DNA of 53,792 nt from a virus, in the IMG/VR virus record IMGVR_UViG_3300025300_000015, positions 1-53,792 of that record; one strand, given 5' to 3'. The translations under genes were made by a program, and so were the position numbers. A model generated the notes under the pieces. The model made no database searches and was not told where the DNA came from. It saw only the letters and a program-made list of their open reading frames with translations. How positions within the stretch are numbered: position 1 is the stretch's first letter; each line of letters opens with the position of its first letter. Shown one piece after another: positions 1 to 49,433 of this stretch.

Positions 1-150
1 GGTACGGGGGGTGTGGGGTGGCCTCAATCCCAAAATCCCCGCGACGAGACAACGCCGTCGATCCGCACGTCCACCGCGACGATCCGTGGAACCATTCGCC
101 TGATGTGTGCCGACCGTCAAGCATCGTGGTGAGATGTTGGAGGAGGGCGG

Positions 151-855
151 CTACTTCCCGCCCGGCTCAGGCAGCAGCTTGGCTGCACGTTCGCTCATAA
201 GGCGTGCCATATCCTGTAGCTTGCCGTCCTGCTGGATGCGTTGTGAACCATCGAGCGTGACCTTCATAAATCGCGACTCAAGGTCTACCTCGATCCTCTT
301 GTTGTCGCCGTACTGCTGGTTGAACTTCCCGGCACGCCATCGGTGCGACTCCAGAACGACTCGTGCTGCGCGATTGTGGACTTCACCGGACAGGACCGCT
401 TGCTCCAGTGTGATCATATCATCGACGACCGAATCCCCCGCCATGCTTTGGGCTTCCCGGTATGCCACGTCGAATGCGGGGCAATCCCTTCTCCACAACC
501 ACACAGTCGCTCTGCACGGCAGCCCCTCTTGCCTCGCCAGATTGGTCAGCGAATTGCCTTCAGCCACTCCCATCAGCACTCGTTCAGCGACTTCCGCTGT
601 GAATCCCTTCGCGGCCCAACCACCCCATCCTCTCAGCTTCTCCGCTTCGATCTCCCGTGTCTTCCGGTCATCGAGGATCATGTCGTTGACGGCAGCCGCC
701 TTGGTGTAGCAATCCCGGCCCTTGCTATCGATCACGTCATCCTCAGTCACCGTCACGACAGGCACGTCAGGCTCAGTCTCAGCAGTCTCAGCGGCCTCGT
801 CCTGCACCACTGTCTCAGCGATCACCTCGGCCAGCTTGTCCGTGAGATCGTCCAT
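151..855 (-). CDS. terS: Terminase small subunit (probable)
   Basis: Probable small terminase of 234 aa, the DNA-recognition subunit that loads the phage genome onto the large terminase. The first 40 residues are acidic and probably disordered. A helix-turn-helix-like segment follows at about residues 88-125 (AEVAERVLMGVAEG, then NSLTNLARQEGLP and a WLWRRD turn), as in small terminases of the Sf6 type. The C-terminal half is helical and basic. The ATG is preceded by a GAGGCG ribosome site. It is the first gene of the minus-strand block. If the ends of the window are joined, the large terminase (start 53398) lies about 540 bp downstream in the same direction, which is the usual order. The assignment rests on position and HTH pattern, not on a searched match. 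Confidence 0.7.
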   Translation of the reverse strand: MDDLTDKLAEVIAETVVQDEAAETAETEPDVPVVTVTEDDVIDSKGRDCYTKAAAVNDMILDDRKTREIEAEKLRGWGGWAAKGFTAEVAERVLMGVAEGNSLTNLARQEGLPCRATVWLWRRDCPAFDVAYREAQSMAGDSVVDDMITLEQAVLSGEVHNRAARVVLESHRWRAGKFNQQYGDNKRIEVDLESRFMKVTLDGSQRIQQDGKLQDMARLMSERAAKLLPEPGGK

Positions 856-877
856 GATTTCGCCTCAATTCAGCGTC

Positions 878-905
878 ATTAAAACTTTACACAAGAATAT
901 TTCAA
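878..905 (-). promoter_or_regulatory. Putative sigma70-like promoter of the small terminase
   Basis: On the minus strand, TTGAAA (905-900) and TTTAAT (883-878) are separated by 16 bp. Each matches the sigma70 consensus at five of six positions. The predicted start site lies about 15-20 bp before the terS ribosome site. Tandem repeats lie immediately upstream of the -35 box, so this is a candidate regulated promoter for the packaging and structural block. Confidence 0.45.
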
Positions 906-913
906 CTGTCCAT

Positions 914-943
914 CAGATAATTCCAGATAATTCCCAGATTCCC
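914..943. repeat. Tandem 10-bp repeats upstream of the terS promoter
   Basis: Two perfect tandem copies of CAGATAATTC (914-923 and 924-933) are followed by a degenerate third, CCAGATTCCC (934-943). The 10-bp period places the copies on one face of the helix. They lie just upstream of the minus-strand promoter at 878-905, which suits binding sites for an activator or repressor. Confidence 0.5.
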
Positions 944-1294
944 TAAAAAAACTTTTCCACCGCAACCTCCGTCCATATCACCAGTTGTGTGCATCCCTCA
1001 AGTTTATCTCCAGAACAACCGAACAACACGGTACACGATAGCGTATACTCTGATGGGGAGAGGAAGCATGACAAGTGAAGACGAGCGACCGGACAGGGCA
1101 ACTTTTGAAGGCCCCGTTTGAGCCACTGCGAGGCACTCCTCTGGAATGTGCCACGGGTAAACTGCCGACTCAACGTTCTGTCCCCGGAATCAACCGCTCG
1201 TCTGATATATCGGAAACAATCACGTCATCTGACGGGGAAACTTGTCAGGTGGCCTTTCAGCACATCCGCACCTTCAACAACAGGAGCATCAACC
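944..1294. other. Divergent intergenic region between terS and the early genes
   Basis: This stretch separates the minus-strand terS from the first plus-strand early gene. It holds a TATACT hexamer at 1044-1049 without a convincing -35 box, and a 17-codon ORF with a strong ribosome site (1068-1121, listed separately). Nothing else convincing is seen. Longer open frames here lack codon-like composition. The plus-strand early promoter is expected in this region but was not pinned down. Confidence 0.4.
1068..1121 (+). CDS. Possible 17-aa leader peptide
   Basis: ATG at 1068 follows a strong ribosome site (GGAGAGGAAGC) and opens a 17-codon frame, MTSEDERPDRATFEGPV. It lies downstream of a TATACT hexamer and about 170 bp before the first clear early gene. 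It could be a leader peptide or a chance frame. Support is the ribosome site and the hydrophilic peptide only; no function is assigned. Confidence 0.25.
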   Translation: MTSEDERPDRATFEGPV

Positions 1295-1528
1295 ATGAAC
1301 GATTTCAAAATCGGAGACGATCCAGAACGGCTGGCGCGTCCGCACTGGACAGTCGCACTGAAGGCCGAGAACGCAGCACTGAAGGCCGAGTTGTTGTGGG
1401 TGCGGCGTGTTTCTGCTTATGCCCGACAAGAGTGGAGTTCTTGCCAATGGAAAGCAGCCTTGATCGAGATCGAATTGCGGCTCCTAGAGGCCGAAGATCG
1501 AAGAAGTCACTCTAAAGGCCACGACTGA
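1295..1528 (+). CDS. Small early protein, charged helical
   Basis: 77-aa protein of unknown function. The start is fixed by the AACAACAGGAGCATC cassette 5' of ATG 1295, although the frame is open further upstream. The sequence is rich in Ala, Glu, Arg and Leu, with heptad-like stretches (AENAALKAELLW, then IEIELRLLEAEDRR), so it is probably a short helical or coiled-coil protein. It is the first of a run of about 25 small plus-strand early genes that share the same ribosome-site cassette. No enzyme motif is visible. Confidence 0.7.
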   Translation: MNDFKIGDDPERLARPHWTVALKAENAALKAELLWVRRVSAYARQEWSSCQWKAALIEIELRLLEAEDRRSHSKGHD

Positions 1529-1558
1529 ACCCCGCACCTTCAACTTAGGAGCATGACC

Positions 1559-1690
1559 ATGAACATCCTCGCGCCAGATACGCAGCAGATGATAGATATC
1601 GTCGCTGGACTCGTCACTCGCGGAATCACTTTTGAGGCGGCGGCACTCAACAACGGAACGTGGAACATCGAACTTACTGGCGGGTTCTGA
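1559..1690 (+). CDS. Tiny early protein (43 aa)
   Basis: 43-aa hypothetical protein, MNILAPDTQQMIDIVAGLVT continuing to an ELTGGF end. ATG 1559 follows the ACTTAGGAGCATGACC cassette used throughout this region, which is the main reason to accept so short a gene. It lies 30 bp after the previous gene and 29 bp before the next. No motif or membrane segment is visible. Confidence 0.6.
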   Translation: MNILAPDTQQMIDIVAGLVTRGITFEAAALNNGTWNIELTGGF

Positions 1691-1719
1691 TCACTCACCT
1701 CAAACGCAGGAGCAGGAAC

Positions 1720-1998
1720 ATGAAAACCATCACCAGCACGGACATTTACGGCGACATCTACAGACTCCGAGCCGACTGGACGCAGGCATCTAGCCAGATC
1801 GAGCGTGACACTGAGGACGGATGGGAGCCGACTGGATGGCAGGTAGCGGATTTCTCCCATGACTCTGCCGAGGCGATGAGACAGGAACTGCGCGATGCCG
1901 TGAGGGCTGGCGGAGACGATCCTGACGAAAGCGAGATCGCGGACGAGATCAGCAAGGCAACGCTGGATTGCACCGCCGCCCCCGAGGACTACGACTGA
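1720..1998 (+). CDS. Small acidic early protein, paralogue of the 3530 gene
   Basis: 92-aa acidic protein of unknown function. ATG 1720 is set by an AGGAGCAGGAAC cassette. It shares a clear pattern with the product at 3530-3859: YGDIYRLRADWTQASSQIER here against YGEIVSVRADWSDASSPVER there. Both continue with a (W)xPTG..VADF block and an acidic tail of similar spacing. The two are therefore diverged duplicates within one operon. Neither shows catalytic residues. They may be small host-takeover or inhibitor proteins, but nothing in the sequence proves it. Confidence 0.75.
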   Translation: MKTITSTDIYGDIYRLRADWTQASSQIERDTEDGWEPTGWQVADFSHDSAEAMRQELRDAVRAGGDDPDESEIADEISKATLDCTAAPEDYD

Positions 1999-2025
1999 CA
2001 CCCCCTAACAACAGGAGCATCGAAC

Positions 2026-2313
2026 ATGACGCAGCGAATCGGTAAACACAGGACGCGCATCGAGCAGGGATCGGGCGGGACGGAAGTCCGGTATCACGGG
2101 ACCGCCGTGGTATCGTTCAACGATAACGAAATCACCCTCCGCACTGGCGGGTGGAGGACCGCGACCACAAAAAAACGAATGAACCAGACATCGGACCAGT
2201 TCGATCTGGGATTCAACGTCTACCAGAAATCCTACCAGTGGTTCGTCGTCCACCGTGGACAGACTGTGGATTTCGACGGCGATAGCCTCACCTTGCAGCG
2301 TTTCGCCCCCTAA
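2026..2313 (+). CDS. Conserved small phage protein (TGGWRTATTKKRMNQ motif)
   Basis: 95-aa protein of unknown function. ATG 2026 follows an ACAACAGGAGCATCGAAC cassette. The block TGGWRTATTKKRMNQ, followed by the alternating pattern FNVYQKSYQWFVV, resembles a short beta-rich phage protein seen in many environmental phages. That recognition is from memory, not a search. The fold is probably a small all-beta domain. It sits in the early operon, 27 bp after the acidic paralogue and 16 bp before the next gene. Confidence 0.75.
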   Translation: MTQRIGKHRTRIEQGSGGTEVRYHGTAVVSFNDNEITLRTGGWRTATTKKRMNQTSDQFDLGFNVYQKSYQWFVVHRGQTVDFDGDSLTLQRFAP

Positions 2314-2329
2314 CAACAGGAGCAGGAAC

Positions 2330-2560
2330 ATGATCTCTGCCTACGCATCTCGCGACGACTTTCTTGCCGATCTGAATCGTGAACGACTGTCCTCGTCTGG
2401 GAGGTGGTACGGATTTGTCGGCACGGTGGAAGGCCACGAAATCCAGTTGAAATCATTCGGCACTTGGAACCAACGGTACGACCATGACGGACTGATGTGT
2501 GGCGGCATACACGACCTTAACGTGACCGAATGGAAGCGGGAGATTCTCTCGCCATTCTGA
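2330..2560 (+). CDS. Hypothetical early protein
   Basis: 76-aa hypothetical protein. The start is set by ACAACAGGAGCAGGAAC before ATG 2330; the frame is open upstream into the previous gene, but no other ribosome site exists. The N-terminus (SRDDFLADLNRERL) is helical and the rest is rich in Gly, Trp and Tyr (GRWYGFVGTVEGHE), suggesting a small alpha+beta domain. No known family is recognised. Confidence 0.7.
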   Translation: MISAYASRDDFLADLNRERLSSSGRWYGFVGTVEGHEIQLKSFGTWNQRYDHDGLMCGGIHDLNVTEWKREILSPF

Positions 2561-2590
2561 CCACTCACCCCAAACACAGGAGCAACGAAC

Positions 2591-2791
2591 ATGACTTTCG
2601 ACGCACTCAATGCAGAGGAACAGATCAGCGAGGAGATCTACGAGGCAGACTCACCGTTCACAGCGGACGAACCGCTTGCCCCGGTTGACTGCCCCCTGTG
2701 CAGTGGATCGTCCGCTTTTCTGGGGACACTTGGAAACTCCGACTGGTTCCGGTGCCGCGACTGTGGCGGCGAATATCACCGCGAACGGTGA
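2591..2791 (+). CDS. Small zinc-ribbon protein
   Basis: 66-aa protein ending in a probable zinc ribbon. It has an acidic N-terminal 30 residues, then CPLC at about 34-37 and CRDC at about 55-58, the CxxC-n17-CxxC spacing of a single treble-clef or ribbon. ATG 2591 follows ACAGGAGCAACGAAC. Similar short ribbons in phage early regions bind nucleic acid or a host protein; which applies here is not visible. The sequence just before this cassette is a near copy of that before the 1720 gene. Confidence 0.75.
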   Translation: MTFDALNAEEQISEEIYEADSPFTADEPLAPVDCPLCSGSSAFLGTLGNSDWFRCRDCGGEYHRER

Positions 2792-2816
2792 GGCCAGACT
2801 GAGACGATCCGCAACA

Positions 2817-2836
2817 CCACGCCTTGCGAGGCGTGG
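2817..2836 (+). terminator. GC hairpin before the tRNA-like gene
   Basis: Perfect 7-bp stem (CCACGCC/GGCGTGG) with a 6-nt loop TTGCGA, followed by CATTGTTG rather than a U run. It may be a terminator-like or RNA-processing hairpin. A related hairpin with the same 3' CATTGTTG flank lies at 14245-14273. Confidence 0.4.
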
Positions 2837-2858
2837 CATTGTTGACCGTCGAGAAACA

Positions 2859-2996
2859 ACAGGGATAGCTCAGAGGCAGAGCGTCCAGCCTAGCAGTGAA
2901 AACCGATGGGAGTGACTCTTCCAGAGGCAACACACTGCACCCGTCTAGTCAACGGGAACGGCTGGGAGGTCGCGGGTTCGACTCCCGCTCCCTGCA
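2859..2996 (+). tRNA. tRNA-like gene with a ~66-nt insertion in the anticodon arm
   Basis: Both ends look like a tRNA. ACAGGGA (2859-2865) pairs with TCCCTGC (2989-2995) except for the first pair (A-C). TA and the D arm GCTC/GAGC (2868-2882) follow. At the 3' side come a canonical AGGTC variable loop (2967-2971) and a T arm GCGGG-TTCGACT-CCCGC (2972-2988), then A and CC (no encoded CCA). Where a 17-nt anticodon arm belongs there are 83 nt. They form an outer stem TCCAGCC/GGCTGGG (2884-2890/2960-2966), a GCAGTG/CACTGC stem (2893-2898/2933-2938), and a 5-bp hairpin CCCGT-CTAGTCA-ACGGG (2940-2956) that itself looks like an anticodon arm. The identity and the functional anticodon cannot be assigned. 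It may be intron-containing, chimeric or degenerate. Confidence 0.5.
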
Positions 2997-3040
2997 CCGC
3001 ACTTGAACTGAACGATCACCCCCAACTTAGGAGCATCAAC

Positions 3041-3214
3041 ATGGTTACCAAAAACGAGGCGAATGAGACCGCGAGAAAATTGACTGAGGACGACGAGGAT
3101 GGGTGGATCTACGAGGCAGTTCACCCCGCACATCCGAAGAGCAGTTTTCTTCAGGTCTACGACGAGAACGGCGTATTTCTCGGGAAACTTTCCACCCTAA
3201 CCCAAGGCGCATGA
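3041..3214 (+). CDS. Hypothetical early protein (57 aa)
   Basis: 57-aa acidic protein of unknown function, starting MVTKNEANETARKL. ATG 3041 follows the AACTTAGGAGCATCAAC cassette, 43 bp after the tRNA-like gene. The middle (GWIYEAVHP, then FLQVYDENGVFLGKL) suggests a small beta hairpin. The stop overlaps an ATG of the following frame (ATGA), so the next gene may be translationally coupled. Confidence 0.7.
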   Translation: MVTKNEANETARKLTEDDEDGWIYEAVHPAHPKSSFLQVYDENGVFLGKLSTLTQGA

Positions 3215-3216
3215 CC

Positions 3217-3447
3217 ATGAGACTCGATGACCTGCTTGAAATCCTCCACGAGATCCAGCGTATCAATCAGGCAGCAGGAGAGACGGCAGTCAATCCCGCC
3301 GTCACGCAAATCGTCAAGGACGGCATAGCTACAGCACGCAAACGTGAACGCAGCAAGTTGGCTGATCTCATGGCGATTGCTGAAACAAAACGGATTCGCA
3401 ATGAAGACCCGCTCGTCTGGATCGATGACGATGGCACAAACCACTGA
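3217..3447 (+). CDS. Hypothetical early protein, helical
   Basis: 76-aa hypothetical protein, mostly helical (LDDLLEILHEIQRINQAAGE), with a basic middle (ARKRERSKLADLM) and an acidic end. Two ATGs are possible, 3211 and 3217. The second was chosen because its distance from the AAGG ribosome site matches the ATGACCATG layout of the 1559 and 8842 genes. No catalytic motif is seen. Confidence 0.65.
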   Translation: MRLDDLLEILHEIQRINQAAGETAVNPAVTQIVKDGIATARKRERSKLADLMAIAETKRIRNEDPLVWIDDDGTNH

Positions 3448-3467
3448 TCAGCTAACGATCCCGATCA

Positions 3468-3490
3468 CCCCGCCTGTCCGATGGGCGGGG
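3468..3490 (+). terminator. GC hairpin without U tract
   Basis: CCCCGCC (3468-3474) pairs perfectly with GGCGGGG (3484-3490) around a 9-nt loop. It lies in the gap between two early genes. No T run follows, so it is more likely an mRNA-stabilising or processing hairpin than a full terminator. Confidence 0.35.
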
Positions 3491-3529
3491 GCATCGCGAC
3501 CGTTTCACCCACAACATAGGAGATCCGCA

Positions 3530-3859
3530 ATGACAAAACACGCAGCATTCCTGTACGGCGAGATCGTCAGCGTCCGTGCCGACTGGTCAGACGCATCGTC
3601 TCCCGTCGAGCGTTCAGACGGCGGCGACTGGCAACCGACAGGTCTGGTCGCCGACTTTGCCAGTCCCCGCGAGGCATTGCGTCAGGCCCTTGAGCAGTTC
3701 GCCATCGACGGCGGCATGGACTCGCGAGACAACTCCCGCGATGACATTGACGAGGCAGTGGAGGATGCGTTCAAAAACGAGGCGGGACCGTCCGACCTCG
3801 CGATCATTCAGTACATGGATCGCGATCCGATGAGACGGTGCCACGCATGCGGAGAGTGA
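3530..3859 (+). CDS. Small acidic early protein, paralogue of the 1720 gene
   Basis: 109-aa acidic protein of unknown function. ATG 3530 follows ACATAGGAGATCCGCA. Residues about 8-45 parallel the 1720-1998 product (YGEIVSVRADW, ASSPVERSDGGDWQPTG, VADFASPREALRQAL). It differs by a longer C-terminal tail that ends in a lone CHAC motif. This is a probable in-operon duplication followed by divergence. Function unknown. Confidence 0.75.
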   Translation: MTKHAAFLYGEIVSVRADWSDASSPVERSDGGDWQPTGLVADFASPREALRQALEQFAIDGGMDSRDNSRDDIDEAVEDAFKNEAGPSDLAIIQYMDRDPMRRCHACGE

Positions 3860-3913
3860 CTGATCAACGGCACGATGACTTGCGGTGGTGCGGCCCAGAA
3901 AGCGAGGCACAAC

Positions 3914-4096
3914 ATGGTACGGATTACACTCGCACTGGCATTGGTGATTTCGCTGTCGGGCTGCGCCAACAGCATGCTTGGGGCAGTCGAGGCGGCACGT
4001 TCTCTAGGCGGCGGCATTCTTGATGACGCACAGGGAATGCTGGAAGGCGGCGCGGATCGTTACCAGCAACTGCATCAGCAGCAGCAGAACGACTAA
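3914..4096 (+). CDS. Small lipoprotein (entericidin-like size)
   Basis: 60-aa predicted lipoprotein. The N-terminus MVRITLALALVISLSGC is a short basic start, a hydrophobic core and an LSGC lipobox, with lipidated Cys at residue 17. The mature part is only about 44 residues, Gly/Ala-rich (AARSLGGGILDDAQGMLEGG), ending in a Gln-rich tail. Size and layout recall entericidin-type lipoproteins, which are host genes, so it may be an acquired superinfection or membrane factor. An outer-membrane spanin is another option, though no inner-membrane partner is adjacent. ATG 3914 has a GAGG ribosome site. Confidence 0.65.
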   Translation: MVRITLALALVISLSGCANSMLGAVEAARSLGGGILDDAQGMLEGGADRYQQLHQQQQND

Positions 4097-4153
4097 CTGA
4101 CTGCAACAACGGGCCGCGCCACCGCGAGTCATCACATCAACAGGAGCAACAGC

Positions 4154-4432
4154 ATGAACAACATGAGGAGCAGTCGGCGTTGGGTGAGACCGCCAGCCGA
4201 GGTTCTGACGGCAGAACGAGGCGACAGTCTGAGCCGGGCAACGACCGAGTCCGGGTACATCGCGACGACAACGAGCGGCGAGTGGTTTCAGGTCTCAGCC
4301 ACCGGGCATCTGGAGGCGTGGCTTCTGGCCGAGCAGCGGGTCCAGTATTTCTGGCGGACGCACAGCGAGTTGGCGAACATCGAGCGTCACGATCCGGGCG
4401 ATGAGTTGCCCCCATTTTTAGATCACATTTAG
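4154..4432 (+). CDS. Hypothetical early protein
   Basis: 92-aa hypothetical protein. ATG 4154 follows an ATCAACAGGAGCAACAGC cassette. The N-terminus is basic (MRSSRRWVRPP), followed by a probable beta region (SGYIATTTSGEWFQV) and a helical, acidic C-terminus (HLEAWLLAEQRVQYFWRTH). No family is recognised. Confidence 0.65.
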   Translation: MNNMRSSRRWVRPPAEVLTAERGDSLSRATTESGYIATTTSGEWFQVSATGHLEAWLLAEQRVQYFWRTHSELANIERHDPGDELPPFLDHI

Positions 4433-4543
4433 CAGCGATTCCGGTTGTCCGCCGGGGAACTGGCGGTCAACCTTTTCACGAGAGACCTCTCGCAAAATGA
4501 ACCAGTGCGCCGCCTTGTGCGTAGTACACTACACAGGACACTA

Positions 4544-4801
4544 ATGGATGACTTCAAATACAACCTGAGATTCGGCGGCAGGAAGTCGCCGCGAACCCTC
4601 ACCCGTGCCTATCAGATTCTTCTGGAGCATCACCCCGAGGTGCAGAGGGATGCGGAGATCGCCCGAAGATTCATGCCCGATGGCATGACCACTGAGGATC
4701 AGCTTGCCTTCTGGCAGGCGTGGCTCAAGGCAACTCAACGTGACCTACGAAAGGAGCAGCAGTATGAACCCAAACAGCAGGTTCGCGAGGATGAGTCCTG
4801 A
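4544..4801 (+). CDS. Hypothetical early protein
   Basis: 85-aa hypothetical protein beginning MDDFKYNLRFGGRKSPRTL. ATG 4544 was chosen because an AGGA ribosome site lies 7 bp upstream. The frame is open further back to a TTG at 4445, giving up to 118 aa, but without a ribosome site. The protein is helical and rich in Arg, Gln and Glu. Its end overlaps the next gene by 38 bp, in a different frame. Confidence 0.6.
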   Translation: MDDFKYNLRFGGRKSPRTLTRAYQILLEHHPEVQRDAEIARRFMPDGMTTEDQLAFWQAWLKATQRDLRKEQQYEPKQQVREDES

Positions 4802-5027
4802 CGCGATCAGGGATCTTGGAAAGCTGGCGTACCGATGCCGAGCCTACAAGGGCGCGAGGGCTTACGAGAGACTGGCACGACTCTGGAGTCGTCGCCGGGG
4901 AGAGGACGCAGCAGAGGGGACTGAGCGGCCCGGAATGCCCTGCTACATCTGCGGCAGGCACTTCGCACCCGAGAACGACAACCAGCGGCAGGCCCAGTTG
5001 TGCCAGCCGTGCATCTGGGGACGGTAA
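4764..5027 (+). CDS. Zinc-finger early protein
   Basis: 87-aa protein with a C-terminal zinc finger: CYIC at about 60-63 and CQPC at about 80-83, with spacing suitable for one Zn ion. The first 50 residues are strongly basic (YRCRAYKGARAYERLARLWSRRR), consistent with nucleic-acid binding. ATG 4764 follows AAAGGAGCAGCAGT and overlaps the end of the previous gene. The function is probably regulatory, inferred from composition only. Confidence 0.7.
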   Translation: MNPNSRFARMSPDAIRDLGKLAYRCRAYKGARAYERLARLWSRRRGEDAAEGTERPGMPCYICGRHFAPENDNQRQAQLCQPCIWGR

Positions 5028-5052
5028 ACATCCCTACAACAGGAGCAACAGC

Positions 5053-5535
5053 ATGAGCGATGTAAAACGGAAACGCAGACGGCGAGGTACGAAAGTTGAG
5101 CGAGACGGGCTGGCCTTGCTCAAGGCGTTGAGTGCCGATCCAGATCGATCAATGCCGACTGACTGGTTGACTTCCCACCTGTCAGGGGTCGTCGGCGGGG
5201 CAATCAGCGACCAGAGTCTCCAGCGTGTACGCAGGGCGATGGCGTGGCTTGCCGATCACCCAGAGCATTCACTGCGAGTCGAGCGTAAAAACAGAAGCCG
5301 CTGGCAGTACATCAGTCCTGAACGCGCCATCCGCCGTCAGGTACAGGACTTCACCAAACAGGAGAACAAGGCGGCAGCGGAGGGACTTGTCGAGGAGATT
5401 GGCAGGATCATCAACGACCCTGTCGCATTCCAGAATGTCTGGATGACGCCCAACGGTGGCGTTGAGTACGATGTGAGGGTAGGCAGTAAGGCCGCCGCCC
5501 TTCTGATCGAGTACCTGAAAAAGAAGTCTAGTTGA
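5053..5535 (+). CDS. Winged-helix-like DNA-binding protein
   Basis: 160-aa protein with a very basic N-terminus (KRKRRRRGTK). A probable winged-helix domain spans about residues 15-85: helices at DGLALLKALS and TDWLTSHL, a recognition-helix candidate SDQSLQRVRRAMAWL, then a wing-like WQYISPE. The C-terminal part is helical with a short beta end. ATG 5053 follows TACAACAGGAGCAACAGC. It ends immediately before the strong promoter at 5532, so it could regulate the downstream ATPase/peptidase module. That link is inference from position. Confidence 0.6.
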   Translation: MSDVKRKRRRRGTKVERDGLALLKALSADPDRSMPTDWLTSHLSGVVGGAISDQSLQRVRRAMAWLADHPEHSLRVERKNRSRWQYISPERAIRRQVQDFTKQENKAAAEGLVEEIGRIINDPVAFQNVWMTPNGGVEYDVRVGSKAAALLIEYLKKKSS

Positions 5536-5560
5536 CAGACCGCACCAGTACGACTATACT
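5532..5560 (+). promoter_or_regulatory. Strong sigma70-type promoter
   Basis: A perfect TTGACA (5532-5537), a 17-bp spacer and TATACT (5555-5560), five of six bases of TATAAT. It lies at the end of the winged-helix-like gene and about 40 bp before the MoxR-type ATPase, so the ATPase/coiled-coil/peptidase module probably has its own transcript from the host polymerase. It is the best promoter seen in the window. Confidence 0.8.
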
Positions 5561-5601
5561 GTGCCGTGTACCGCACAGCACCAACAACAGGAGCAACGAA
5601 C

Positions 5602-6630
5602 ATGAGACCTTCAGAACTTATCACCGCACTGAACTACTGGATTCCGACTGGCAGGAATATCTGGGTATCTGGCCCTCCCGGCGTGGGCAAGACGAGCGTG
5701 ATCGAGGCAGTGATCGACGGGCTGGATCTGGACATGGCGATGCTTCCGCCTGCCGTGACTCTCGATCCCGTTGACGTTCGCGGCATCCCGCACGTCACTC
5801 AGACCAACGGATCAGCGATCACGGCGTGGGCCGTCCCCGAGTTCTGGCCTACCGATCCCAACTGGAAGGGCGTGATCGTCCTTGACGAGTTTGGCAAGGC
5901 TGCCCCGGCAGTGCAGGCTGCGTTCCTTCAGATTTGCTACGCACCTCCCGGACGACCCCGGCAGTTGGGCAGCTACACCGTCCCCGAGGGGGCCTCCTTC
6001 GTCATCATGTCGAACAGGCAGGAGGACCGGGCAGGTGAGCATCGTGTCATCACTCCGATGCTCTCGCGTTTCGTTCATCTCGATTTTGAGGTGAGCCTTG
6101 AGGACTGGCAGAAGTGGGCCATCGGCAACGGCATCGATTCTCGCATCCGGTCCTTCTTGAATTTCAAACCCGCGATGCTCTTCACCTTCGACCCGAAGGC
6201 AAACCAACGGTCCTTCGCATCCCCACGCACATGGGAACTCGCGAACGATGCAGTGGACGCGCCCGAATCTGTCCGTCAGGCAAGCCTCGCTGGTTGCATC
6301 GGTGACGGGCCAGCCGCTGAGTTCGCCGGGTTCATGGAGATCGCTGATCGCCTGCCCGAGGCCCGAGAGATACTGGCCGATCCCGAGAATGCCACCGTGC
6401 CGAGTGAGCCGAGCATCAGCTACGCACTCGTCGGTGCGTTGGCCGAGGAGGCTCGTAAGGCCGAGGGCAGAGACAAGGTGCTGAAGGGCATCGGCATCTT
6501 CGCTGGTCGCATGAAGCCAGAGTTTGGCGTGCTTCTCATCCGCGACACAGCAGAGATCGATCCCCGGATCATCACTATTCCCGAGACGAGGGAATTCTTG
6601 AAAACCAACCGCCACCTGTTGGCGGACTGA
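5602..6630 (+). CDS. MoxR-type AAA+ ATPase
   Basis: 342-aa AAA+ ATPase of the MoxR type (COG0714-like). Walker A GPPGVGKTS is at residues 24-32, Walker B VIVLDE at 91-96, and a sensor-1 Asn in IMSN at about 138. An Arg-bearing LSRF segment follows, and the C-terminal part is a helical lid. MoxR ATPases act as chaperone-like remodellers paired with VWA proteins, and this gene is followed two genes later by a VWA-like metallopeptidase. ATG 5602 follows CAACAACAGGAGCAACGAAC, with a strong promoter directly upstream. CobS of phage cobalt-chelatase fame is a relative, but the partner here is not CobT. Confidence 0.85.
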   Translation: MRPSELITALNYWIPTGRNIWVSGPPGVGKTSVIEAVIDGLDLDMAMLPPAVTLDPVDVRGIPHVTQTNGSAITAWAVPEFWPTDPNWKGVIVLDEFGKAAPAVQAAFLQICYAPPGRPRQLGSYTVPEGASFVIMSNRQEDRAGEHRVITPMLSRFVHLDFEVSLEDWQKWAIGNGIDSRIRSFLNFKPAMLFTFDPKANQRSFASPRTWELANDAVDAPESVRQASLAGCIGDGPAAEFAGFMEIADRLPEAREILADPENATVPSEPSISYALVGALAEEARKAEGRDKVLKGIGIFAGRMKPEFGVLLIRDTAEIDPRIITIPETREFLKTNRHLLAD

Positions 6631-6677
6631 CCGCACCGCACCCCGCACCCATTCACCCTTAACTTAGGAGCAACGGC

Positions 6678-7517
6678 ATGAACATTCAGAACATCAGCGT
6701 GGCAGGAGCAGTCACCTATTGGAAGCTAGGCTGGGCCAACAGGCGGCAACTCATCCTTGAGAGCGAGGACCGTGGCATCAGTGGAAGCTGGGTTCCAGCG
6801 GCGAGAGCCGACATCGCAGTTCTCAAGTCGATCCTTGATCTGCACTTCGGCCAGAAGGAAGACCTCATCCGCCCCCTCAAAGGGCGGGTGGGGTACGAGG
6901 TCGTGCGTGAGACCCGAGGCGATGATCGCAACGGGTACGGACATGTCGTGACAATCACCGTGGAAAACGGCATCGTCGAACGTGATGACGGGCAACCAGA
7001 TGCCGTGTTGCAGAACCAGTTCGATGAGTACAAGGACTTGTTGAGCAACGAGGCACTGAGCGGCGGACTGGTCCGGTACGTTGCAGCGTTGGGCGGAGTT
7101 CCCCTTCGCCCGTCCGGAGCGGTGTACTGGATTCCAGAGGATCGGCTGGCCCAGTGGTCACAGGTTTCCAGTGCCGTGGAAGCGGCCACGGTTGTCGGTG
7201 AGCCATCGGTCTACATCCTGCGGACGCAGTTCGATGAGGCCCTTGTCCGAGCCGTGCGTGACGGCGTGACCTCCGAGGTCGAGTCGAAGATCGGTGATCT
7301 GGAAGACGACATGAACCGCACCGACTTAGGCGAACGTGCCTTCAAGGGCCGCATTGAAATGGCTCGGGAAGCACGGCAGAAACTGAAGCGTTACGAGCGT
7401 GACCTTGAGGTCTCACTGTCAACCCTGTCCGACCGTCTGGTCGAACTGGAAACACAAGCCGCACAAGCCGCGATCCTCGCCAGTGCTAGGGCAGCGGCAG
7501 AAAGGAAGGCATCGTGA
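6678..7517 (+). CDS. Coiled-coil protein of the ATPase/peptidase module
   Basis: 279-aa protein of unknown function between the MoxR-type ATPase and the VWA-type peptidase. Residues 1-150 look globular (GAVTYWKLGWANRRQLIL; a YVAALGGVPLRPSGAVYWIP block). Residues about 190-279 form a long charged coiled coil (VESKIGDLEDDMNRTDLGER to the end). ATG 6678 follows AACTTAGGAGCAACGGC. The stop overlaps the GTG of the peptidase by 4 bp, so the two are translationally coupled. It is probably an adaptor or substrate of the ATPase/peptidase pair. A link to DUF6744 came to mind but was not checked. Confidence 0.7.
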   Translation: MNIQNISVAGAVTYWKLGWANRRQLILESEDRGISGSWVPAARADIAVLKSILDLHFGQKEDLIRPLKGRVGYEVVRETRGDDRNGYGHVVTITVENGIVERDDGQPDAVLQNQFDEYKDLLSNEALSGGLVRYVAALGGVPLRPSGAVYWIPEDRLAQWSQVSSAVEAATVVGEPSVYILRTQFDEALVRAVRDGVTSEVESKIGDLEDDMNRTDLGERAFKGRIEMAREARQKLKRYERDLEVSLSTLSDRLVELETQAAQAAILASARAAAERKAS

Positions 7518-8782
7518 CCATCGCGACTGACAAGATGACAATTCTTGAGCAAGAGGTAGTACGGCTGGGCATGGAGGAAAAAGGCGAGGCGGCGATAGCC
7601 GGGGCGAAGTCCCGTCTCGTCCTCGTCAGCGATGCCCGGACAGTCTTCTTCAGTAATCTCGCACTCCACATGGATGAAAAGCCAAGCTGGCAAATACCAA
7701 CGGCAGCCACGGACGGCAAGAACATTCTTTATAACCCCGAGTGGATCAGTAGCCTGCCGCCAGCCGAGGTGCAGGGGGTGCTGGCCCACGAGGTGATGCA
7801 CTGTGTCCTTGAACACTTCGCACGTCTGGGCAATCGCGACATGCGTAAGGCAAACATCGCGATGGACCTAGCGATCAACCCCATGCTGATCGAAGCTGGC
7901 TTCAGCCTGCCGAGCAGCGTGTGCCTGCCAGACAGGGAGCCGTTCGACAAGTTGAATCTTCCCGCCGAGGCCAGCTTTGAGGAATACTACAGCCTCCTGC
8001 CTGACGAGGATGGCAACGATGGCGGCGAAGACGGCGGCGAAGATGGCGACGAGGGACGCCTTGTCGAGGGCGATGACCCCGGCGGATGCGGTGGAGTTCG
8101 ACCCGCCGCCGACGAGTCCGGGCGACAGGCTGATCAAGCTACGCAGCGGAAGTTGGCCGAGGACTGGAAGCGTCGAGCGACCCAAGCCCATCAGGTGGCA
8201 AAGATGCGTGGCGATCTGCCTGCCGGGATCGACCGTCTCATCGAGGGGATCGAGCGACCACAGGTTCCGTGGACCGAGGTGCTGACGCAGTTCGTAAACA
8301 CGACAGCGAAGAACGACTACGACTGGCGTAAGCCCAATCGTCGGTTCGCCTCGCAGGGTATGTACTTCCCGAGCCTACAGTCCCAAGAGTTGGGCGACTT
8401 GGTCCTCGCCGTGGACACGTCAGGTTCCATCGGCACGGCGGAACTCCGCCAGTTTGCGGGAGAACTCCAAGGAATCCTCGATGCCTTCGACGTTCGCCTG
8501 ACGATTCTGTATCACGACACCGAGGTCTCTCACGTTCAGCAGTGGGAGACAAGCGATGGCCCTCTGAAGCTGGAGGCACGGGGCGGTGGAGGCACCAGCC
8601 ACCACTGCGTGTTCGACTGGATCGAGAGGAACGCAACCGAGGTGACGGCGATGATCTCCCTGACTGACCTGTACACCTCTCTGCCTGACGAGGCTCCGAC
8701 ATACCCCGTGGTGTGGGTATGCACCAGCAACGAGGTAGCCCCGTGGGGACAGACGTTGCCGATAACGGTGAAGGGTGACTGA
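7514..8782 (+). CDS. Predicted metallopeptidase with VWA-like domain (COG3864/DUF2201 type)
   Basis: 422-aa protein. The N-terminal part is a predicted zinc metallopeptidase with HEVMH (HExxH) at residues 92-96 inside LAHEVMHCVLEH. A Gly/Asp/Glu-rich linker (about 163-195) follows. The C-terminal part is a von Willebrand A-like domain with a MIDAS signature DTSGS at 301-305 and a later GGGGTS. This matches the DUF2201/COG3864 peptidases that accompany MoxR ATPases in bacteria. GTG 7514 overlaps the previous stop. A perfect hairpin follows the gene. In a phage the pair could remodel or degrade a host or rival-phage complex; that role is inference. Confidence 0.85.
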   Translation: MTIATDKMTILEQEVVRLGMEEKGEAAIAGAKSRLVLVSDARTVFFSNLALHMDEKPSWQIPTAATDGKNILYNPEWISSLPPAEVQGVLAHEVMHCVLEHFARLGNRDMRKANIAMDLAINPMLIEAGFSLPSSVCLPDREPFDKLNLPAEASFEEYYSLLPDEDGNDGGEDGGEDGDEGRLVEGDDPGGCGGVRPAADESGRQADQATQRKLAEDWKRRATQAHQVAKMRGDLPAGIDRLIEGIERPQVPWTEVLTQFVNTTAKNDYDWRKPNRRFASQGMYFPSLQSQELGDLVLAVDTSGSIGTAELRQFAGELQGILDAFDVRLTILYHDTEVSHVQQWETSDGPLKLEARGGGGTSHHCVFDWIERNATEVTAMISLTDLYTSLPDEAPTYPVVWVCTSNEVAPWGQTLPITVKGD

Positions 8783-8789
8783 TGCACTC

Positions 8790-8815
8790 CCGCCAGCGGG
8801 AAACCGCTGGCGGGG
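8790..8815 (+). terminator. Perfect hairpin closing the ATPase/peptidase module
   Basis: CCCGCCAGCGG-GAAA-CCGCTGGCGGG is an 11-bp perfect stem with a stable GAAA tetraloop, 8 bp after the peptidase stop. The following bases (GGATTCTCAA) lack a clean U run, so termination may be partial. It marks the end of the three-gene module. Confidence 0.5.
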
Positions 8816-8841
8816 GATTCTCAACTACAAGGAGCATGACC

Positions 8842-9093
8842 ATGACCGAACACGCAAAATTCCGTGATCCCAATTGGATGCCGCCAAAACCAGAACCACT
8901 ACCAGCCGCAGACAAGGTAAAAGCCCTGCTTGATGCAGGAAAAAGGGATGAGGCGTACCGATACGCCAAAGCGTACAACGTCAACTGGTTTGAACTAGCG
9001 GAAAAGGGCGAACTATTAAACCTGACGGATCTTCTGGCAGTTAATGATGAAATCCTAGTAGACCACCACACAAGGAGCAACGATGACCAATAA
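8842..9093 (+). CDS. Hypothetical early protein
   Basis: 83-aa hypothetical protein, starting MTEHAKFRDPNWMPPKPEP. A Pro-rich N-terminus is followed by helices (ADKVKALLDAGKRDEAYRYA) and an acidic Leu-rich end. ATG 8842 follows AAGGAGCATGACC; a nearby ATG two codons earlier is less well spaced. The end overlaps the next gene by 11 bp. Confidence 0.65.
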   Translation: MTEHAKFRDPNWMPPKPEPLPAADKVKALLDAGKRDEAYRYAKAYNVNWFELAEKGELLNLTDLLAVNDEILVDHHTRSNDDQ

Positions 9094-9325
9094 GCCCACC
9101 CTTGTAATCGCATACGAAAGCCTTGGTAACGGACTCACTCACCAGCCTCCCGTTTCCCCCAAGAGGAGATCGGGCTACGAGTTCCTGATGCTTGTGGACG
9201 ATGGGACCAAGGACGGCGGCGCGGTGCTGATGATCCTGCCATCGAGTACCAGCGACGACCAACTCCATGCGGTGGCTGACACTATGGGTTGGGATATCAC
9301 GGCAATCGAGAGGCGGCAAAAATGA
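9083..9325 (+). CDS. Hypothetical early protein
   Basis: 80-aa hypothetical protein. ATG 9083 follows AAGGAGCAACG inside the end of the previous gene. The middle has a beta-strand pattern (YEFLMLVDDGTKDGGAVLMI) and the end is helical (DDQLHAVADTMGW). It overlaps the following small basic gene by 4 bp. No family recognised. Confidence 0.65.
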   Translation: MTNKPTLVIAYESLGNGLTHQPPVSPKRRSGYEFLMLVDDGTKDGGAVLMILPSSTSDDQLHAVADTMGWDITAIERRQK

Positions 9326-9456
9326 CTGACCGCAACAGAAAGAATCGACATCAACGTGGCAAGACATATCAGGCAAGGGGCAGGAACTTTAAGCGTGTCG
9401 GGAAGAAGGGACTCGTCAAGAAGAAACAGTTTCGCACTAAGGGAAAAGAAACATGA
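9322..9456 (+). CDS. Tiny very basic protein (44 aa)
   Basis: 44-aa protein, MTDRNRKNRHQRGKTYQARG and on to FRTKGKET, with about 18 Lys or Arg residues and only one acidic residue before the last three. It overlaps the preceding gene by 4 bp and the next gene by 4 bp (ATGA at both ends), so it looks like a coupled real gene despite its size. Such a composition suggests nucleic-acid or ribosome binding; function not known. Confidence 0.6.
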   Translation: MTDRNRKNRHQRGKTYQARGRNFKRVGKKGLVKKKQFRTKGKET

Positions 9457-9479
9457 AAACGAACGAAGTGGTTAACACA
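9439..9479 (+). repeat. 41-bp direct repeat, copy 1
   Basis: Exact copy of 9947-9987. It covers a ribosome-site region (AAGGGAAAAGAAAC), the ATG and the codons for MKTNEVVNT of the gene at 9453. Confidence 0.9.
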
Positions 9480-9869
9480 CAGCTTAAATACGCCGTGGGA
9501 ACGTGGGTTAGGGTCATCCCGGAGTACGAAGGGCATTGGTCTAATGCGTTCTACGATTGGATTAAGGGTCGCGTTGGATATGTGGCAGGACTCAACCCAA
9601 GCTCACGACGAGTGTATCTGATTCAGTTTGCTGGTTCTTATGTGTCCGGCAACAGCAGTGCGCACAACATACTTGAGTCAGATTTAATTTCCGCGCCCGT
9701 GGGCCTATCATTTGCGCCAAAGTGCCAAACTTGCGCCCTTCACCACATTTCGGAGATGTGCCATGCTGATGCGTGTAACCCCAGCAAGAACCCGCACTAC
9801 GCATGTACCGGGTGGTCCGGGATGTGTTGTTTCGGTGGTTCATATTGCAAAAGAACCGCTGACAGATGA
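9453..9869 (+). CDS. Cys-rich protein with duplicated N-terminus
   Basis: 138-aa protein. Its first nine residues, MKTNEVVNT, are identical to those of the gene at 9961 because of a 41-bp repeat. Residues about 13-75 look like a small beta domain (VGTWVRVIPEYEG; GRVGYVAGL), as in KOW or SH3-like folds. The last 50 residues hold eight Cys and several His (CQTCALHH, CHADAC, MCCFGGSYC), a likely metal-binding or disulfide-rich module. The start overlaps the tiny basic gene (ATGA). Function unknown. Confidence 0.7.
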   Translation: MKTNEVVNTQLKYAVGTWVRVIPEYEGHWSNAFYDWIKGRVGYVAGLNPSSRRVYLIQFAGSYVSGNSSAHNILESDLISAPVGLSFAPKCQTCALHHISEMCHADACNPSKNPHYACTGWSGMCCFGGSYCKRTADR

Positions 9870-9946: not shown

Positions 9947-9987
9947 AAGGGAAAAGAAACATGAAAACGAACGAAGTGGTTAACACA
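9947..9987 (+). repeat. 41-bp direct repeat, copy 2
   Basis: Exact copy of 9439-9479. It carries the translation start and first nine codons of the gene at 9961. Confidence 0.9.
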
Positions 9988-20062: not shown

Positions 20063-23000
20063 TCAATAGTAAAGGTTGACCTCGTTCTTCAACCAGTCCG
20101 CAGTATCCCCATCCATCATCCCGTTCTTCTTCCTGTTTTTAATAGATGAGTACAGTTGGCTCCTAGACGCACCCATTTTCTTCAAGGCTGCGATCCTACT
20201 CCTCACTGACTTCTTGTCTCGCCGCTTCGCCGCCTTTGCCATATTGCCATACAGCGACACCCGAGTCGGCTTTGTATGCGGCATGAATTTGCGGGCATGG
20301 GCCATTATTCCGGGCGTAGGAACGCCGAGCATCCCTGTGCCGGTAAGGATTTGATCTATTTTCTTTGAAAGGTATGCCCCGTTAGCCAGCTTTTTCTTCT
20401 CCTTATCGGTCAGGTTTTCTTGGTCGGTAAAACTTCGGATAAGCATGTCCGCATTCCACAGCATGCTCGCAGTTTCGCCAACCGTACCAACCACGAATCT
20501 ATCCACGGACTCTGCCAGTATGTTCCGCCTCAAACCCTTGGCCAGATCGCGTGCTTCTCCAGTCTCCAAGAACGCCTTGACTCCGGTGTACGCATAGCCA
20601 ACCCAGTCCCCAACCCCAATCCACGATCCGCCGAGTGTTCTGGTAATGGAGTCGTGAAACACGTCGGCCCAGAAGTCGTCGTCGTCGTCACCGAACCCGA
20701 TGGCTGCGAGGCCGAGTCCAAACATCCACCAGTACGCCCTCCTTATCAGGGCCACAGAAAATCCAGAAACAAAACTGGTATGGGCTACGTTGTAGGCAAA
20801 CTTGGAATATGCGGCGCGAGGGTCCTTGCCTTCTCGAACCTCCTGCCTCGCAGTCAAGGCCGCGTCGAAGTTCATGTTGAAGTTCTTGTCACGTTGCGAC
20901 GAGTAAAACAACCCGAAGACCAAGGCCACTGCTTGGTTCTGTCTGGCATAATTGATTTGCTCGCTTGATGTCAGCGTGTCCCAAGTGGGCTGGGAATAGT
21001 TGATCACAAACTCGGCCTTCTTCTTGGTGTAGTCCATGAGTTCCTGCCCACTCAACCCCTTGTCCCGCCCCTCCATCTTGGCCGCACCCCAGATAGCCCT
21101 GATGACAATGAGGTCTGCCTCTAGGATTCCCTGCATACTCTTCCGGACAAAGATGTTGTCGTTCTCTCCGCCGAGGAACTGTCGAAGTGCATTGGTGCGG
21201 GCAAACGCGGTAATAATCTGATGGCCTCCGCCTTCCACACGGTCCCGTATCAATGGAGAATTGGCAACCATCTCCTCCTTGATCCTGTTAGGGTGCAGGC
21301 GACCTTCGTTCTTGGGGTTATACAGGTGCTTGCGACCGATGTATTGCCCGGCGGTATTCATGGATACCATCTGGTAAAACCAGATGTACGGCTTCAAGCC
21401 GAGGTTCGCGACGTGCAAGGGCCTGATCAATTTACCGATCAAGGCCGACAGTACGCCGGGCTGCGTGGTATCAACGCCGCCAAATTTGCGAAGGTGGTCC
21501 TCCATTGACTTGAAGTATGTGTCCGCCCTCTGGAGCCTGTCTCTTACCGTCTGCTTGAAACTTTCGCCCGACTTGCCCGGAGCCTTGTAGTTAAGAATAC
21601 GCATGGCGTTGGCGATAGGCTCTGACTTTGCCGCCATAGCCGCAGTCCTTTGCACATACATGAAATACTCGCCCAACGCATCGTCGATAACGAACGGGTC
21701 ATTACTGGCTCCACGTTCCAAGAAAATCCCCTGCTGATCTAGGCGTTCAGATACATACCCGCCAAGCAGGCTCTCTGGTTGTGCTGCATAGTCCACGTCA
21801 TCTCGCCCACCACGGTATCTTCGCCGTGGCATATATATGGATTCTCCTGTCACCAACGGGTAACCGAAGATTCGCTGCCACACCTCGTTAAGCTGATTGC
21901 GAAGCCTCCCGTTGATGTCGAACTGGATCGCATCGGCCACGGCAACCACGTCCGCCGGGGCGTTACGCATGATCTCCCGCATGTCTCCCTCTCTCAGCTT
22001 GATCGGCCTTTTGGCAGAGGTGGCCTGAGAGCGGATGCGAAGACCCTGCTGGGGGTTCCGTAACAGTTCGCGCCGTGTGCTGGGGTCGGCAAGATGCAAC
22101 AGGAGTGATGCGTATTCCATCGGGGTCAACGACAACTCGCCTACTCTCGTTCCAGTCGGACCCCATGTCGCAGTAGGCAGGATGATCTTGATCTTGTTCT
22201 TCTCTAGGAATGGCTTGGCCTTCCGGACTATGCGTCCTTTTGCGTAGGCCCCACTCACCGCCTCCAGCTTTTCGGGAGAGTAACCTATCCTCTTCAATGC
22301 TCTTTGCAGATAGGTTTGTGCCTCATGCACATACTCCCTCCTCAGATTTTCAGCTTCCAGTAAATCATCTACGAGAATCTTGTGCGTCTCGTTGTTATCC
22401 CCCACAAGCAACTTCACCTTGTTCATCCAGTTTGTCTTGGAGAACCACGCAAACCACTTGAGCGAATTCAGTTTCGGCATTTCCTCTGACGTGGCCTTGG
22501 AACCCAGCTTCGTCGGGTGGGCAATCTCCGCGTTCCTCATGGCTGCGCGGCCAGCCTCGCTCTTATTTCTCTCGCGGATAGCCGTCCTCAGTACCTGCCG
22601 ATCAGCGTTTTGGCGGAGAAGAGTATTTATAGCGGCTCCTAGGGACTTGACCTCGTCAACCGACAGTTGAGATATGGTCCTGTCCTTGGACAGGATTTCT
22701 TTGGCCCGAGTGTACATGGCATCCGGAATGTTCAAGGCGTTGGAGTCAACAATGCCATCAAGCGGAGAGTCCGAGACCTGCTGGCGGACGGCATCCATGA
22801 GTTTTCTGAGTCTGGTAAGAGTTTTCGGAGTCCTCTTGACAAGGTCAATTCCGTCCATCAACGCATCTATCCTGTTCTCAATGTCAGACTCAAGACGATG
22901 TTTACGCCCCTTCCTCTTGAAGGACTTCAACTGCTGTTTCAAGAACGAGATCGCCTCTTGTTTCTCAAACCGCTCTACCATCCTGTTTACGGCGACGACG

Positions 23001-48830: not shown

Positions 48831-48902
48831 GTTGTCGGCCTCCTTGCCGTGCCGGGGTTAGAGTCGTCCTAACTCATCCCTGGAAAGGTATATGGATGAT
48901 TA

Positions 48903-49088
48903 TTACTCGTCAAAAATCATCTTGTCAAATCGATTATCGAGTTCTGCTTTCAATATCTTGTCATGCTGGCCCAGTTCCTTGCAGGAAAGCTCGCCCGCGT
49001 CGGTCGCCTTTAGCAGTCCATTGCCCGTGGCTGGCCTTGATCGACGCGGGCGAGTTCCCCCGATTCCGGCATCACAGGTCATTTGCAT
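48903..49088 (-). CDS. Small hypothetical protein
   Basis: 61-aa frame. ATG 49088 has GAGGG 8 bp upstream and overlaps the end of the preceding gene by 17 bp. It has a basic N-terminal part (GTRPRRSRPATGNG) and a helical acidic end (ELGQHDKILKAELDNRFDKM). It probably fills the space between the FmdB-like gene and the scaffold. The function is unknown, and a chance frame cannot be excluded. Confidence 0.5.
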   Translation of the reverse strand: MQMTCDAGIGGTRPRRSRPATGNGLLKATDAGELSCKELGQHDKILKAELDNRFDKMIFDE

Positions 49089-49425
49089 TGTAATCCCTCG
49101 TGAATCCGTATCTGCGGCACAGGTCCCTCTCTTCGTGCTGGCTGCGGATGATAACCTTGCCGTAATCCCGCCCCTCCTCTTTTACCCACTCCACATTATT
49201 ATTTTGCGGCTTGTTGGGGTCCTGACCGCCGAACTGCGGGAGAGTGGACGATATTTTCGGGTACGACGACAGGTCATAGGCACTGCCGTCAGCAATATTC
49301 CTAGACATGACCCGGCGATACACCTTCCCGCTCCGATTCACGGGCGTGCCGATATCCGGTGCCTTGCTCATGGGTCGGTCAACCTCGATCACCTCTCCGT
49401 CATCAGCCATGAATTCGTAAATCAT
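49072..49425 (-). CDS. FmdB-like small protein lacking the zinc cysteines
   Basis: 117-aa protein. The first 40 residues, MIYEFMADDGEVIEVDRPMS then KAPDIGTPVNRSGKVYRRVM, follow the pattern of FmdB-type zinc ribbons, but every metal-binding Cys is replaced. The fold may persist without zinc. The rest is polar, ending in RDLCRRYGFTRDYNANDL. It lies between portal and scaffold, where phages often have a small zinc-ribbon gene. ATG 49425 has AGGACCAGTA. Confidence 0.65.
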   Translation of the reverse strand: MIYEFMADDGEVIEVDRPMSKAPDIGTPVNRSGKVYRRVMSRNIADGSAYDLSSYPKISSTLPQFGGQDPNKPQNNNVEWVKEEGRDYGKVIIRSQHEERDLCRRYGFTRDYNANDL

Positions 49426-49433
49426 TACTGGTC

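What the first reader, a model, noticed from the sequence alone, without database searches (positions are those of the whole stretch)
5532..8815. Promoter-driven MoxR ATPase / coiled-coil / VWA metallopeptidase module in a phage early region
A perfect -35 and a near-perfect -10 box drive three adjacent genes closed by an 11-bp hairpin: a MoxR-type AAA+ ATPase, a coiled-coil protein and an HExxH peptidase with a MIDAS-bearing VWA-like domain. In bacteria such pairs remodel or degrade protein complexes and occur in conflict systems. A complete self-contained unit in a phage suggests a host-takeover, anti-defence or anti-rival machine. The middle gene is a candidate adaptor or toxin and appears undescribed.
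Basis: partly seen in the sequence, partly recalled or inferred. Interest (0 to 1): 0.72.

Follow-up and report, generated by a model that had tools for sequence, protein, structure and literature searches.

The report
Phage MoxR–peptidase machine with DUF6744-like partner
A bacterial virus carries a three-gene protein-remodelling machine: two genes are a pair already known from many phages, and the "undescribed" middle gene turns out to be a distant relative of a protein of unknown function that sits beside this kind of pair on large plasmids and viruses across bacteria and in haloarchaeal viruses, which points to an overlooked three-part system.

Summary
A near-consensus promoter (5532-5560) precedes a MoxR-type AAA+ ATPase (5602-6630), a 279-aa protein (6678-7517) and an HExxH metallopeptidase fused to a VWA/MIDAS domain (7514-8782). 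An 11-bp hairpin follows, but without a T-run. The ATPase/peptidase pair is not new: it is PHROG 1297/1314, matches hundreds of phage records, corresponds to the core genes gp24/gp25 of N4-like phages, and was described in jumbo phages as a chaperone-cochaperone pair. The middle gene is the interesting part. It is a divergent DUF6744-like protein: profile E=3.9e-14, full-length HHalign E=3e-11, a confident AlphaFold model without a PDB match, and viral structural relatives that include halovirus HVTV-1. DUF6744 is linked to MoxR-VWA pairs: 19/19 plasmid records, 8/8 viral contigs, Moorella phage MTATph1, haloviruses (same genome) and 8 bacterial loci, with one clear counterexample. Most use RavA/ViaA-type engines; the window and one Bacillota locus use the distinct phage MoxR/DUF2201 engine, so DUF6744 has changed engines. 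Best reading: an ATP-driven remodelling or proteolysis machine with DUF6744 as dedicated adaptor or client, acting early, near replication. The toxin and anti-defence ideas have no support here. No paper linking DUF6744 to MoxR-VWA was found.

The parts
5532..5560 (+). sigma-70-type promoter-like site TTGACA-17-TATACT
   Evidence: 11/12 match; 0.33 sites of this quality expected per shuffled window
5602..6630 (+). MoxR-type AAA+ ATPase, 342 aa, phage subfamily (phrog_1297)
   Evidence: phrog_1297 E=2.8e-72; groups with phage MoxR, not RavA type, 100/100 support
5671..5694 (+). Walker A GPPGVGKT
   Evidence: sequence; G29 and K30 invariant in 8 phages
6678..7517 (+). DUF6744-like protein, 279 aa: alpha/beta N-terminal domain and C-terminal helical/coiled-coil arm
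   Evidence: profile of 24 DUF6744 proteins 48.6 bits E=3.9e-14, HHalign residues 21-262 E=3.2e-11; model pLDDT 85.7
7110..7136 (+). conserved DUF6744 motif PSGAVYWIP (family: RPSGGVYFVP)
   Evidence: alignments A6 and A7: G147 and Y150 nearly invariant in A6
7514..8782 (+). zincin-like metallopeptidase domain fused to VWA/MIDAS domain (DUF2201_N + DUF2201; phrog_1314, mislabelled HNH endonuclease), overlaps the DUF6744-like gene by 4 bp
   Evidence: PF13203 E=1.8e-49, PF09967 E=3.8e-26; phrog_1314 E=1.2e-96
7787..7801 (+). HEVMH zinc-binding motif (HExxH), third His at residue 101
   Evidence: H92, H96, H101 invariant in A1
8414..8428 (+). MIDAS motif DTSGS (with T361 and D385 downstream)
   Evidence: invariant in A1
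8789..8814 (+). 11-bp perfect hairpin with GAAA loop, no T-run; possible RNA stability or processing element, not a canonical terminator
   Evidence: one of two perfect stems of 10 bp or more in the window; not called as terminator

Best explanation
A three-part ATP-driven protein-remodelling machine. The MoxR ATPase forms the motor ring; the peptidase-VWA protein docks on it through its MIDAS domain and adds zinc-dependent cleavage; the DUF6744-like middle protein is the dedicated third component, an adaptor that delivers a target or the client whose activation needs the machine. It is expressed from one early promoter and probably acts on a replication- or transcription-associated complex early in infection. 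Shown: the three families, operon layout, catalytic motifs, and the linkage of DUF6744 with MoxR-VWA pairs of two separate subfamilies. Inferred: physical complex, adaptor/client role, early replication-linked target, proteolysis.
For: Families and motifs. Middle protein homologous to DUF6744 along residues 21-262, N-terminal half alone E=7e-8, fold shared with viral DUF6744 proteins, TM up to 0.81. DUF6744 beside MoxR+VWA: 12/12 plasmids read and the other 7 of 19 have the MoxR by coordinates; 8/8 IMG/VR records (one across contig ends); Moorella phage MTATph1; HCTV-1 and HVTV-1 in the same genome; 7 Bacillota and 1 Chloroflexota loci. Control: 389 kb of unrelated loci give no hit. Engine swap: window and L090 use phage MoxR+DUF2201, the rest RavA/ViaA type; MoxR trees separate 100/100 while L090's DUF6744 nests among RavA-type partners 97/94. 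L122 has the same order MoxR-DUF6744-VWA. Replication-linked neighbours: RecE-like exonuclease, replication initiator, DnaB in the window; dnaN, RNR, DNA polymerase elsewhere; N4 gp24/25 are middle genes (PMC4193335).
Against: No experiment. A locus with DUF6744 but no MoxR/VWA in about 90 kb exists (L093). MoxR-VWA without DUF6744 exists (L138, L140), and 0/12 phages with the window's own pair type carry it. Atu_ph07's peptidase has HQ instead of HE, so cleavage may not be universal. Published proposals favour virion assembly. The host is unknown, and the window's DUF6744-like protein sits on a long branch.
Confidence: 0.5

Rival explanations
1. Virion assembly chaperone/protease: the MoxR-VWA-peptidase trio matures or processes structural proteins such as tail or head subunits.
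For: Proposed for the homologous pair of Agrobacterium phage Atu_ph07 (PMC7824862); archaeal virus ATV MoxR/VWA proteins act in tail development (cited there); in an N4-like roseophage, virion genes lie next to the gp24/25 homologues (PMC4193335).
Against: In the window and most relatives the genes sit in the early/replication region, apart from the late structural block; the related RavA-type triad is carried by plasmids.
Confidence: 0.22
2. Host-takeover, anti-defence or anti-rival device: the machine unfolds or cleaves host or competitor proteins.
For: Early position; phage- and plasmid-borne; MoxR-vWA ternary systems in bacteria are predicted conflict systems (PMC7159879).
Against: No meaningful PADLOC match; no known effector domain; catalytic and core motifs conserved rather than diversifying.
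Confidence: 0.18
3. Two known genes plus a bystander: the DUF6744-like gene lies between them but works alone.
For: Absent from 12/12 other phages with this pair type; a DUF6744 locus without MoxR-VWA exists.
Against: Linkage in 19/19 plasmids, 8/8 viral contigs and 8 bacterial loci; 4-bp overlap with the peptidase gene in the window.
Confidence: 0.1

Closest known systems
MoxR-vWA/metallopeptidase pair of jumbo phages (Iyer et al. 2021, PMC7824862; Atu_ph07 gp264/gp263)
   Same: homologous ATPase and peptidase-VWA proteins, adjacent genes
   Different: no DUF6744 in that genome; proposed there to act in virion assembly; its HExxH reads HQILH
N4-like phage core genes gp24/gp25 (PHROG 1297/1314)
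   Same: same two protein families; middle-expressed, function unknown in N4 (PMC4193335)
   Different: adjacent or separated by unrelated small genes; no DUF6744 in the two Schitoviridae tested
Plasmid and phage RavA/ViaA-type MoxR-VWA-DUF6744 clusters (for example Brevibacillus, Nocardia and Pseudanabaena plasmids, Moorella phage MTATph1)
   Same: MoxR ATPase + VWA protein + DUF6744 protein in one cluster
   Different: the MoxR belongs to another subfamily (PF20030+PF17868) and the VWA protein shows no DUF2201 peptidase domain
MoxR-vWA ternary conflict systems (Kaur et al. 2020, PMC7159879)
   Same: MoxR and vWA with a specific third protein
   Different: third component there is VMAP, iSTAND, FtsH or beta-propeller; mainly in multicellular bacteria; DUF6744 not named
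E. coli RavA-ViaA
   Same: chaperone and VWA cochaperone logic
   Different: chromosomal, respiratory targets, no DUF6744 or peptidase domain known to me

Membership tests
Phage MoxR ATPase (phrog_1297) | full-length profile match, Walker A/B, sensor, arginine finger | tested here: met
   E=2.8e-72 over residues 1-340; motifs in A2
RavA-type MoxR (PF20030/PF17868) | match to the RavA-type profile | tested here: not met
   2.2 bits with the RavA-type profile against 441 with the phage profile
DUF2201 metallopeptidase-VWA (PF13203+PF09967, phrog_1314) | both domains above curated cut-off, HExxH, MIDAS | tested here: met
   169 and 92 bits against cut-offs 23 and 26; motifs
HNH endonuclease (name given to phrog_1314) | HNH nuclease domain | tested here: not met
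   Pfam shows only peptidase and VWA domains
DUF6744 (PF20529) | score above Pfam's cut-off of 27 bits | tested here: not met
   22.2 bits, E=7.6e-5
DUF6744 (PF20529) | homology by a broader profile and by fold | tested here: met
   48.6 bits E=3.9e-14, HHalign E=3.2e-11; BFVD match to HVTV-1 L7TK87 E=7e-13, and HVTV-1 gp25 is DUF6744 at 69.5 bits. The gene is therefore called DUF6744-like, not a Pfam member
MoxR-vWA ternary conflict systems (PMC7159879) | VMAP, iSTAND, FtsH or beta-propeller third component | tested here: not met
   no such domain in Pfam scans of the three proteins
Physical MoxR-VWA-DUF6744 complex | binding and ATP-dependent remodelling | not testable with these tools
   needs biochemistry; only single-chain prediction available

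The most novel reading that the evidence does not exclude
DUF6744 defines an undescribed class of MoxR-vWA ternary system that belongs to phages and large plasmids of bacteria and to haloarchaeal viruses. DUF6744 is the constant, function-giving part and the ATPase/VWA engine is exchangeable: RavA/ViaA type in most, the N4 gp24/gp25-type peptidase engine in this phage and in a Bacillota element. This would tie the orphan core pair of N4-like phages to a common replication- or establishment-linked function.
Probability: 0.4. Interest if true: 0.75.

Novelty: new variant of a known kind. Interest (0 to 1): 0.57.

Why it matters
The ATPase/peptidase pair is a core feature of N4-like phages with no known function. 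Linking this type of machine to a constant third protein on plasmids and viruses gives a handle: find what DUF6744 binds. It also flags a wrong annotation (HNH endonuclease for a peptidase-VWA protein) seen on many phage records.

Tried and rejected
Middle protein as toxin: no toxin or effector domain, and it belongs to a broadly conserved family. Middle gene as orphan: tblastn in phages, plasmids and IMG/VR found nothing, a false negative overturned by profiles. Direct conserved-peptide searches with broad alignments of the pair failed. Genome-contig search with the ATPase found nothing; the terminase gave only distant, mixed hosts, so the host is unresolved. Pfam PF20529 in 398 Pseudomonadota: none. 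The peptidase structure model was too poor to use (pLDDT 37). The apparent VWA near counterexample L093 was a DNA ligase motif. The coiled-coil-only explanation of the DUF6744 match was rejected: bias 0, and the N-terminal half alone matches.

Full report
WHAT IS THERE. The promoter TTGACA-17-TATACT (5532-5560) matches 11 of 12 consensus bases and is rare in this sequence. The ATPase most likely starts at ATG 5602 behind AGGAG, the middle gene at ATG 6678 behind AGGAG, and the third gene at GTG 7514, overlapping the middle gene's stop as GTGA. The ending hairpin (8789-8814) is real, one of two perfect stems of at least 10 bp in the window, but lacks a T-run, so calling it a terminator goes too far. 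The module lies in a rightward early block that continues into a RecE-like exonuclease, replication initiator and DnaB helicase, opposite a leftward structural block with terminase, portal and capsid genes.

THE PAIR IS KNOWN. The ATPase is phrog_1297 and the third protein phrog_1314. The latter carries the name HNH endonuclease, but Pfam and the motifs show a metallopeptidase domain fused to a VWA/MIDAS domain. By tblastn, 773 phage records match the ATPase and 654 the peptidase, many of them N4-like phages. In the 12 phage records read in detail the two genes always lie within 5 kb of each other. Iyer and colleagues named this pair in jumbo phages a chaperone-cochaperone couple with a fused peptidase and proposed virion assembly (PMC7824862). 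In N4-like phages gp24/gp25 are core genes of the middle class, gene 24 unknown and gene 25 a vWFA protein (PMC4193335).

THE MIDDLE GENE. Simple searches found nothing, but Pfam gave a sub-threshold hit to DUF6744 (22.2 bits). I collected DUF6744 proteins from Bacillota genomes, plasmids and phages and IMG/VR. A profile of 24 of them, built without the window protein, finds the middle gene and no other of 1,035 window ORFs (48.6 bits, E=3.9e-14); HHalign aligns residues 21-262 (E=3.2e-11), and residues 1-175 alone, without most of the coiled coil, give E=7.2e-8. The shared motif is RPSGGVYFVP (window: RPSGAVYWIP). AlphaFold gives a confident model (pLDDT 85.7): an alpha/beta domain and three long C-terminal helices. 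It has no PDB relative at E<=0.001 but four viral ones, including HVTV-1 L7TK87; HVTV-1 gp25 is itself a DUF6744 protein. The window protein stays below Pfam's cut-off, so I call it DUF6744-like.

DUF6744 TRAVELS WITH MoxR-VWA. All 12 plasmid loci read carry an AAA/MoxR gene and a VWA gene next to DUF6744: Brevibacillus, Alicyclobacillus, Streptomyces, Rubrobacter, Nocardia, Pseudanabaena. The remaining seven of the 19 plasmid records have the MoxR match within about 3 kb by coordinates; their VWA gene was not read. All eight IMG/VR records have both partners (for L125 across the contig ends, which assumes a circular record). Moorella phage MTATph1 has the triad. Haloviruses HCTV-1 and HVTV-1 have all three in one genome, 15-18 kb apart. 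Seven Bacillota loci and one Chloroflexota locus have it. Exceptions: one Bacillota element (L093/L094) shows neither partner in about 90 kb, and a broken DUF6744 gene (L095) has none; two contigs were too short, and two sub-cut-off partial matches were not counted. The converse does not hold: MoxR-VWA pairs without DUF6744 exist, and none of 12 phages with the window's own pair type carries DUF6744. Unrelated loci totalling 389 kb gave no hit to any of the five profiles.

TWO ENGINES, ONE PARTNER. The MoxR proteins beside DUF6744 fall into two subfamilies that do not recognise each other's profiles (441 against 2 bits) and separate with 100/100 support. Most are RavA type with a ViaA-like VWA protein. 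The window and Bacillota locus L090 have the phage type with the DUF2201 peptidase. L090's DUF6744 nests among partners of the RavA type (97/94), so at least there the engine was exchanged while DUF6744 stayed. The window's long branch prevents placing its own exchange. This suggests that DUF6744, not the engine, carries the specific function.

HOW IT MAY WORK. From established MoxR biology (RavA-ViaA, midasin, CbbQ-CbbO; my general knowledge and PMC7159879) the ATPase ring uses ATP to remodel a target that the VWA partner positions through its MIDAS. Here the VWA partner also has an intact HExxH motif, so cleavage is plausible. DUF6744 would be adaptor or client. The gene neighbourhood (dnaN, ribonucleotide reductase, DNA polymerase, and ORFs that read like ParB and SSB) points to replication or establishment of the element rather than the capsid. 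The complex, the target and the cleavage are inferences.

VERDICT. Observation confirmed. The pair is known; the identification of the middle gene and its conserved linkage is the added value. I found no paper in the library that mentions DUF6744, and Kaur et al. list other third components, but the library lacks most subscription journals.

Noticed in passing
window 1-53792; G003 (L061-L063): The window is not the whole genome: sister contig G003 is about 99.98% identical over 9720-53792, adds 3.6 kb after the window's end and then joins window 1-178 at 91% identity, implying a circular or permuted genome of about 57.4 kb.
   Followed up: partly
window 179-9719: This stretch, which includes the module, is absent from the 47.8-kb sister contig; it may be a contig break or a strain-variable early region.
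   Followed up: no
window 20063-32080, minus strand: A single 4,005-aa reading frame in the late block with only one weak PHROG hit in the part scanned, and a 36-bp-period tandem repeat at 31428-31562.
   Followed up: no
window 9439-9479 and 9947-9987: An exact 41-bp repeat gives two early genes the same start (MKTNEVVNT).
   Followed up: no
window 48892-49695, plus strand: A 267-aa frame against the direction of the late block, no family match.
   Followed up: no
phage records under phrog_1314: Many public phage records name this peptidase-VWA protein 'HNH endonuclease', apparently a propagated mislabel.
   Followed up: yes
L087:10746-11783: An IscB-like or RRXRR-type reading frame appears to lie between DUF6744 and its MoxR gene in one Bacillota locus (read from the sequence start only).
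   Followed up: no
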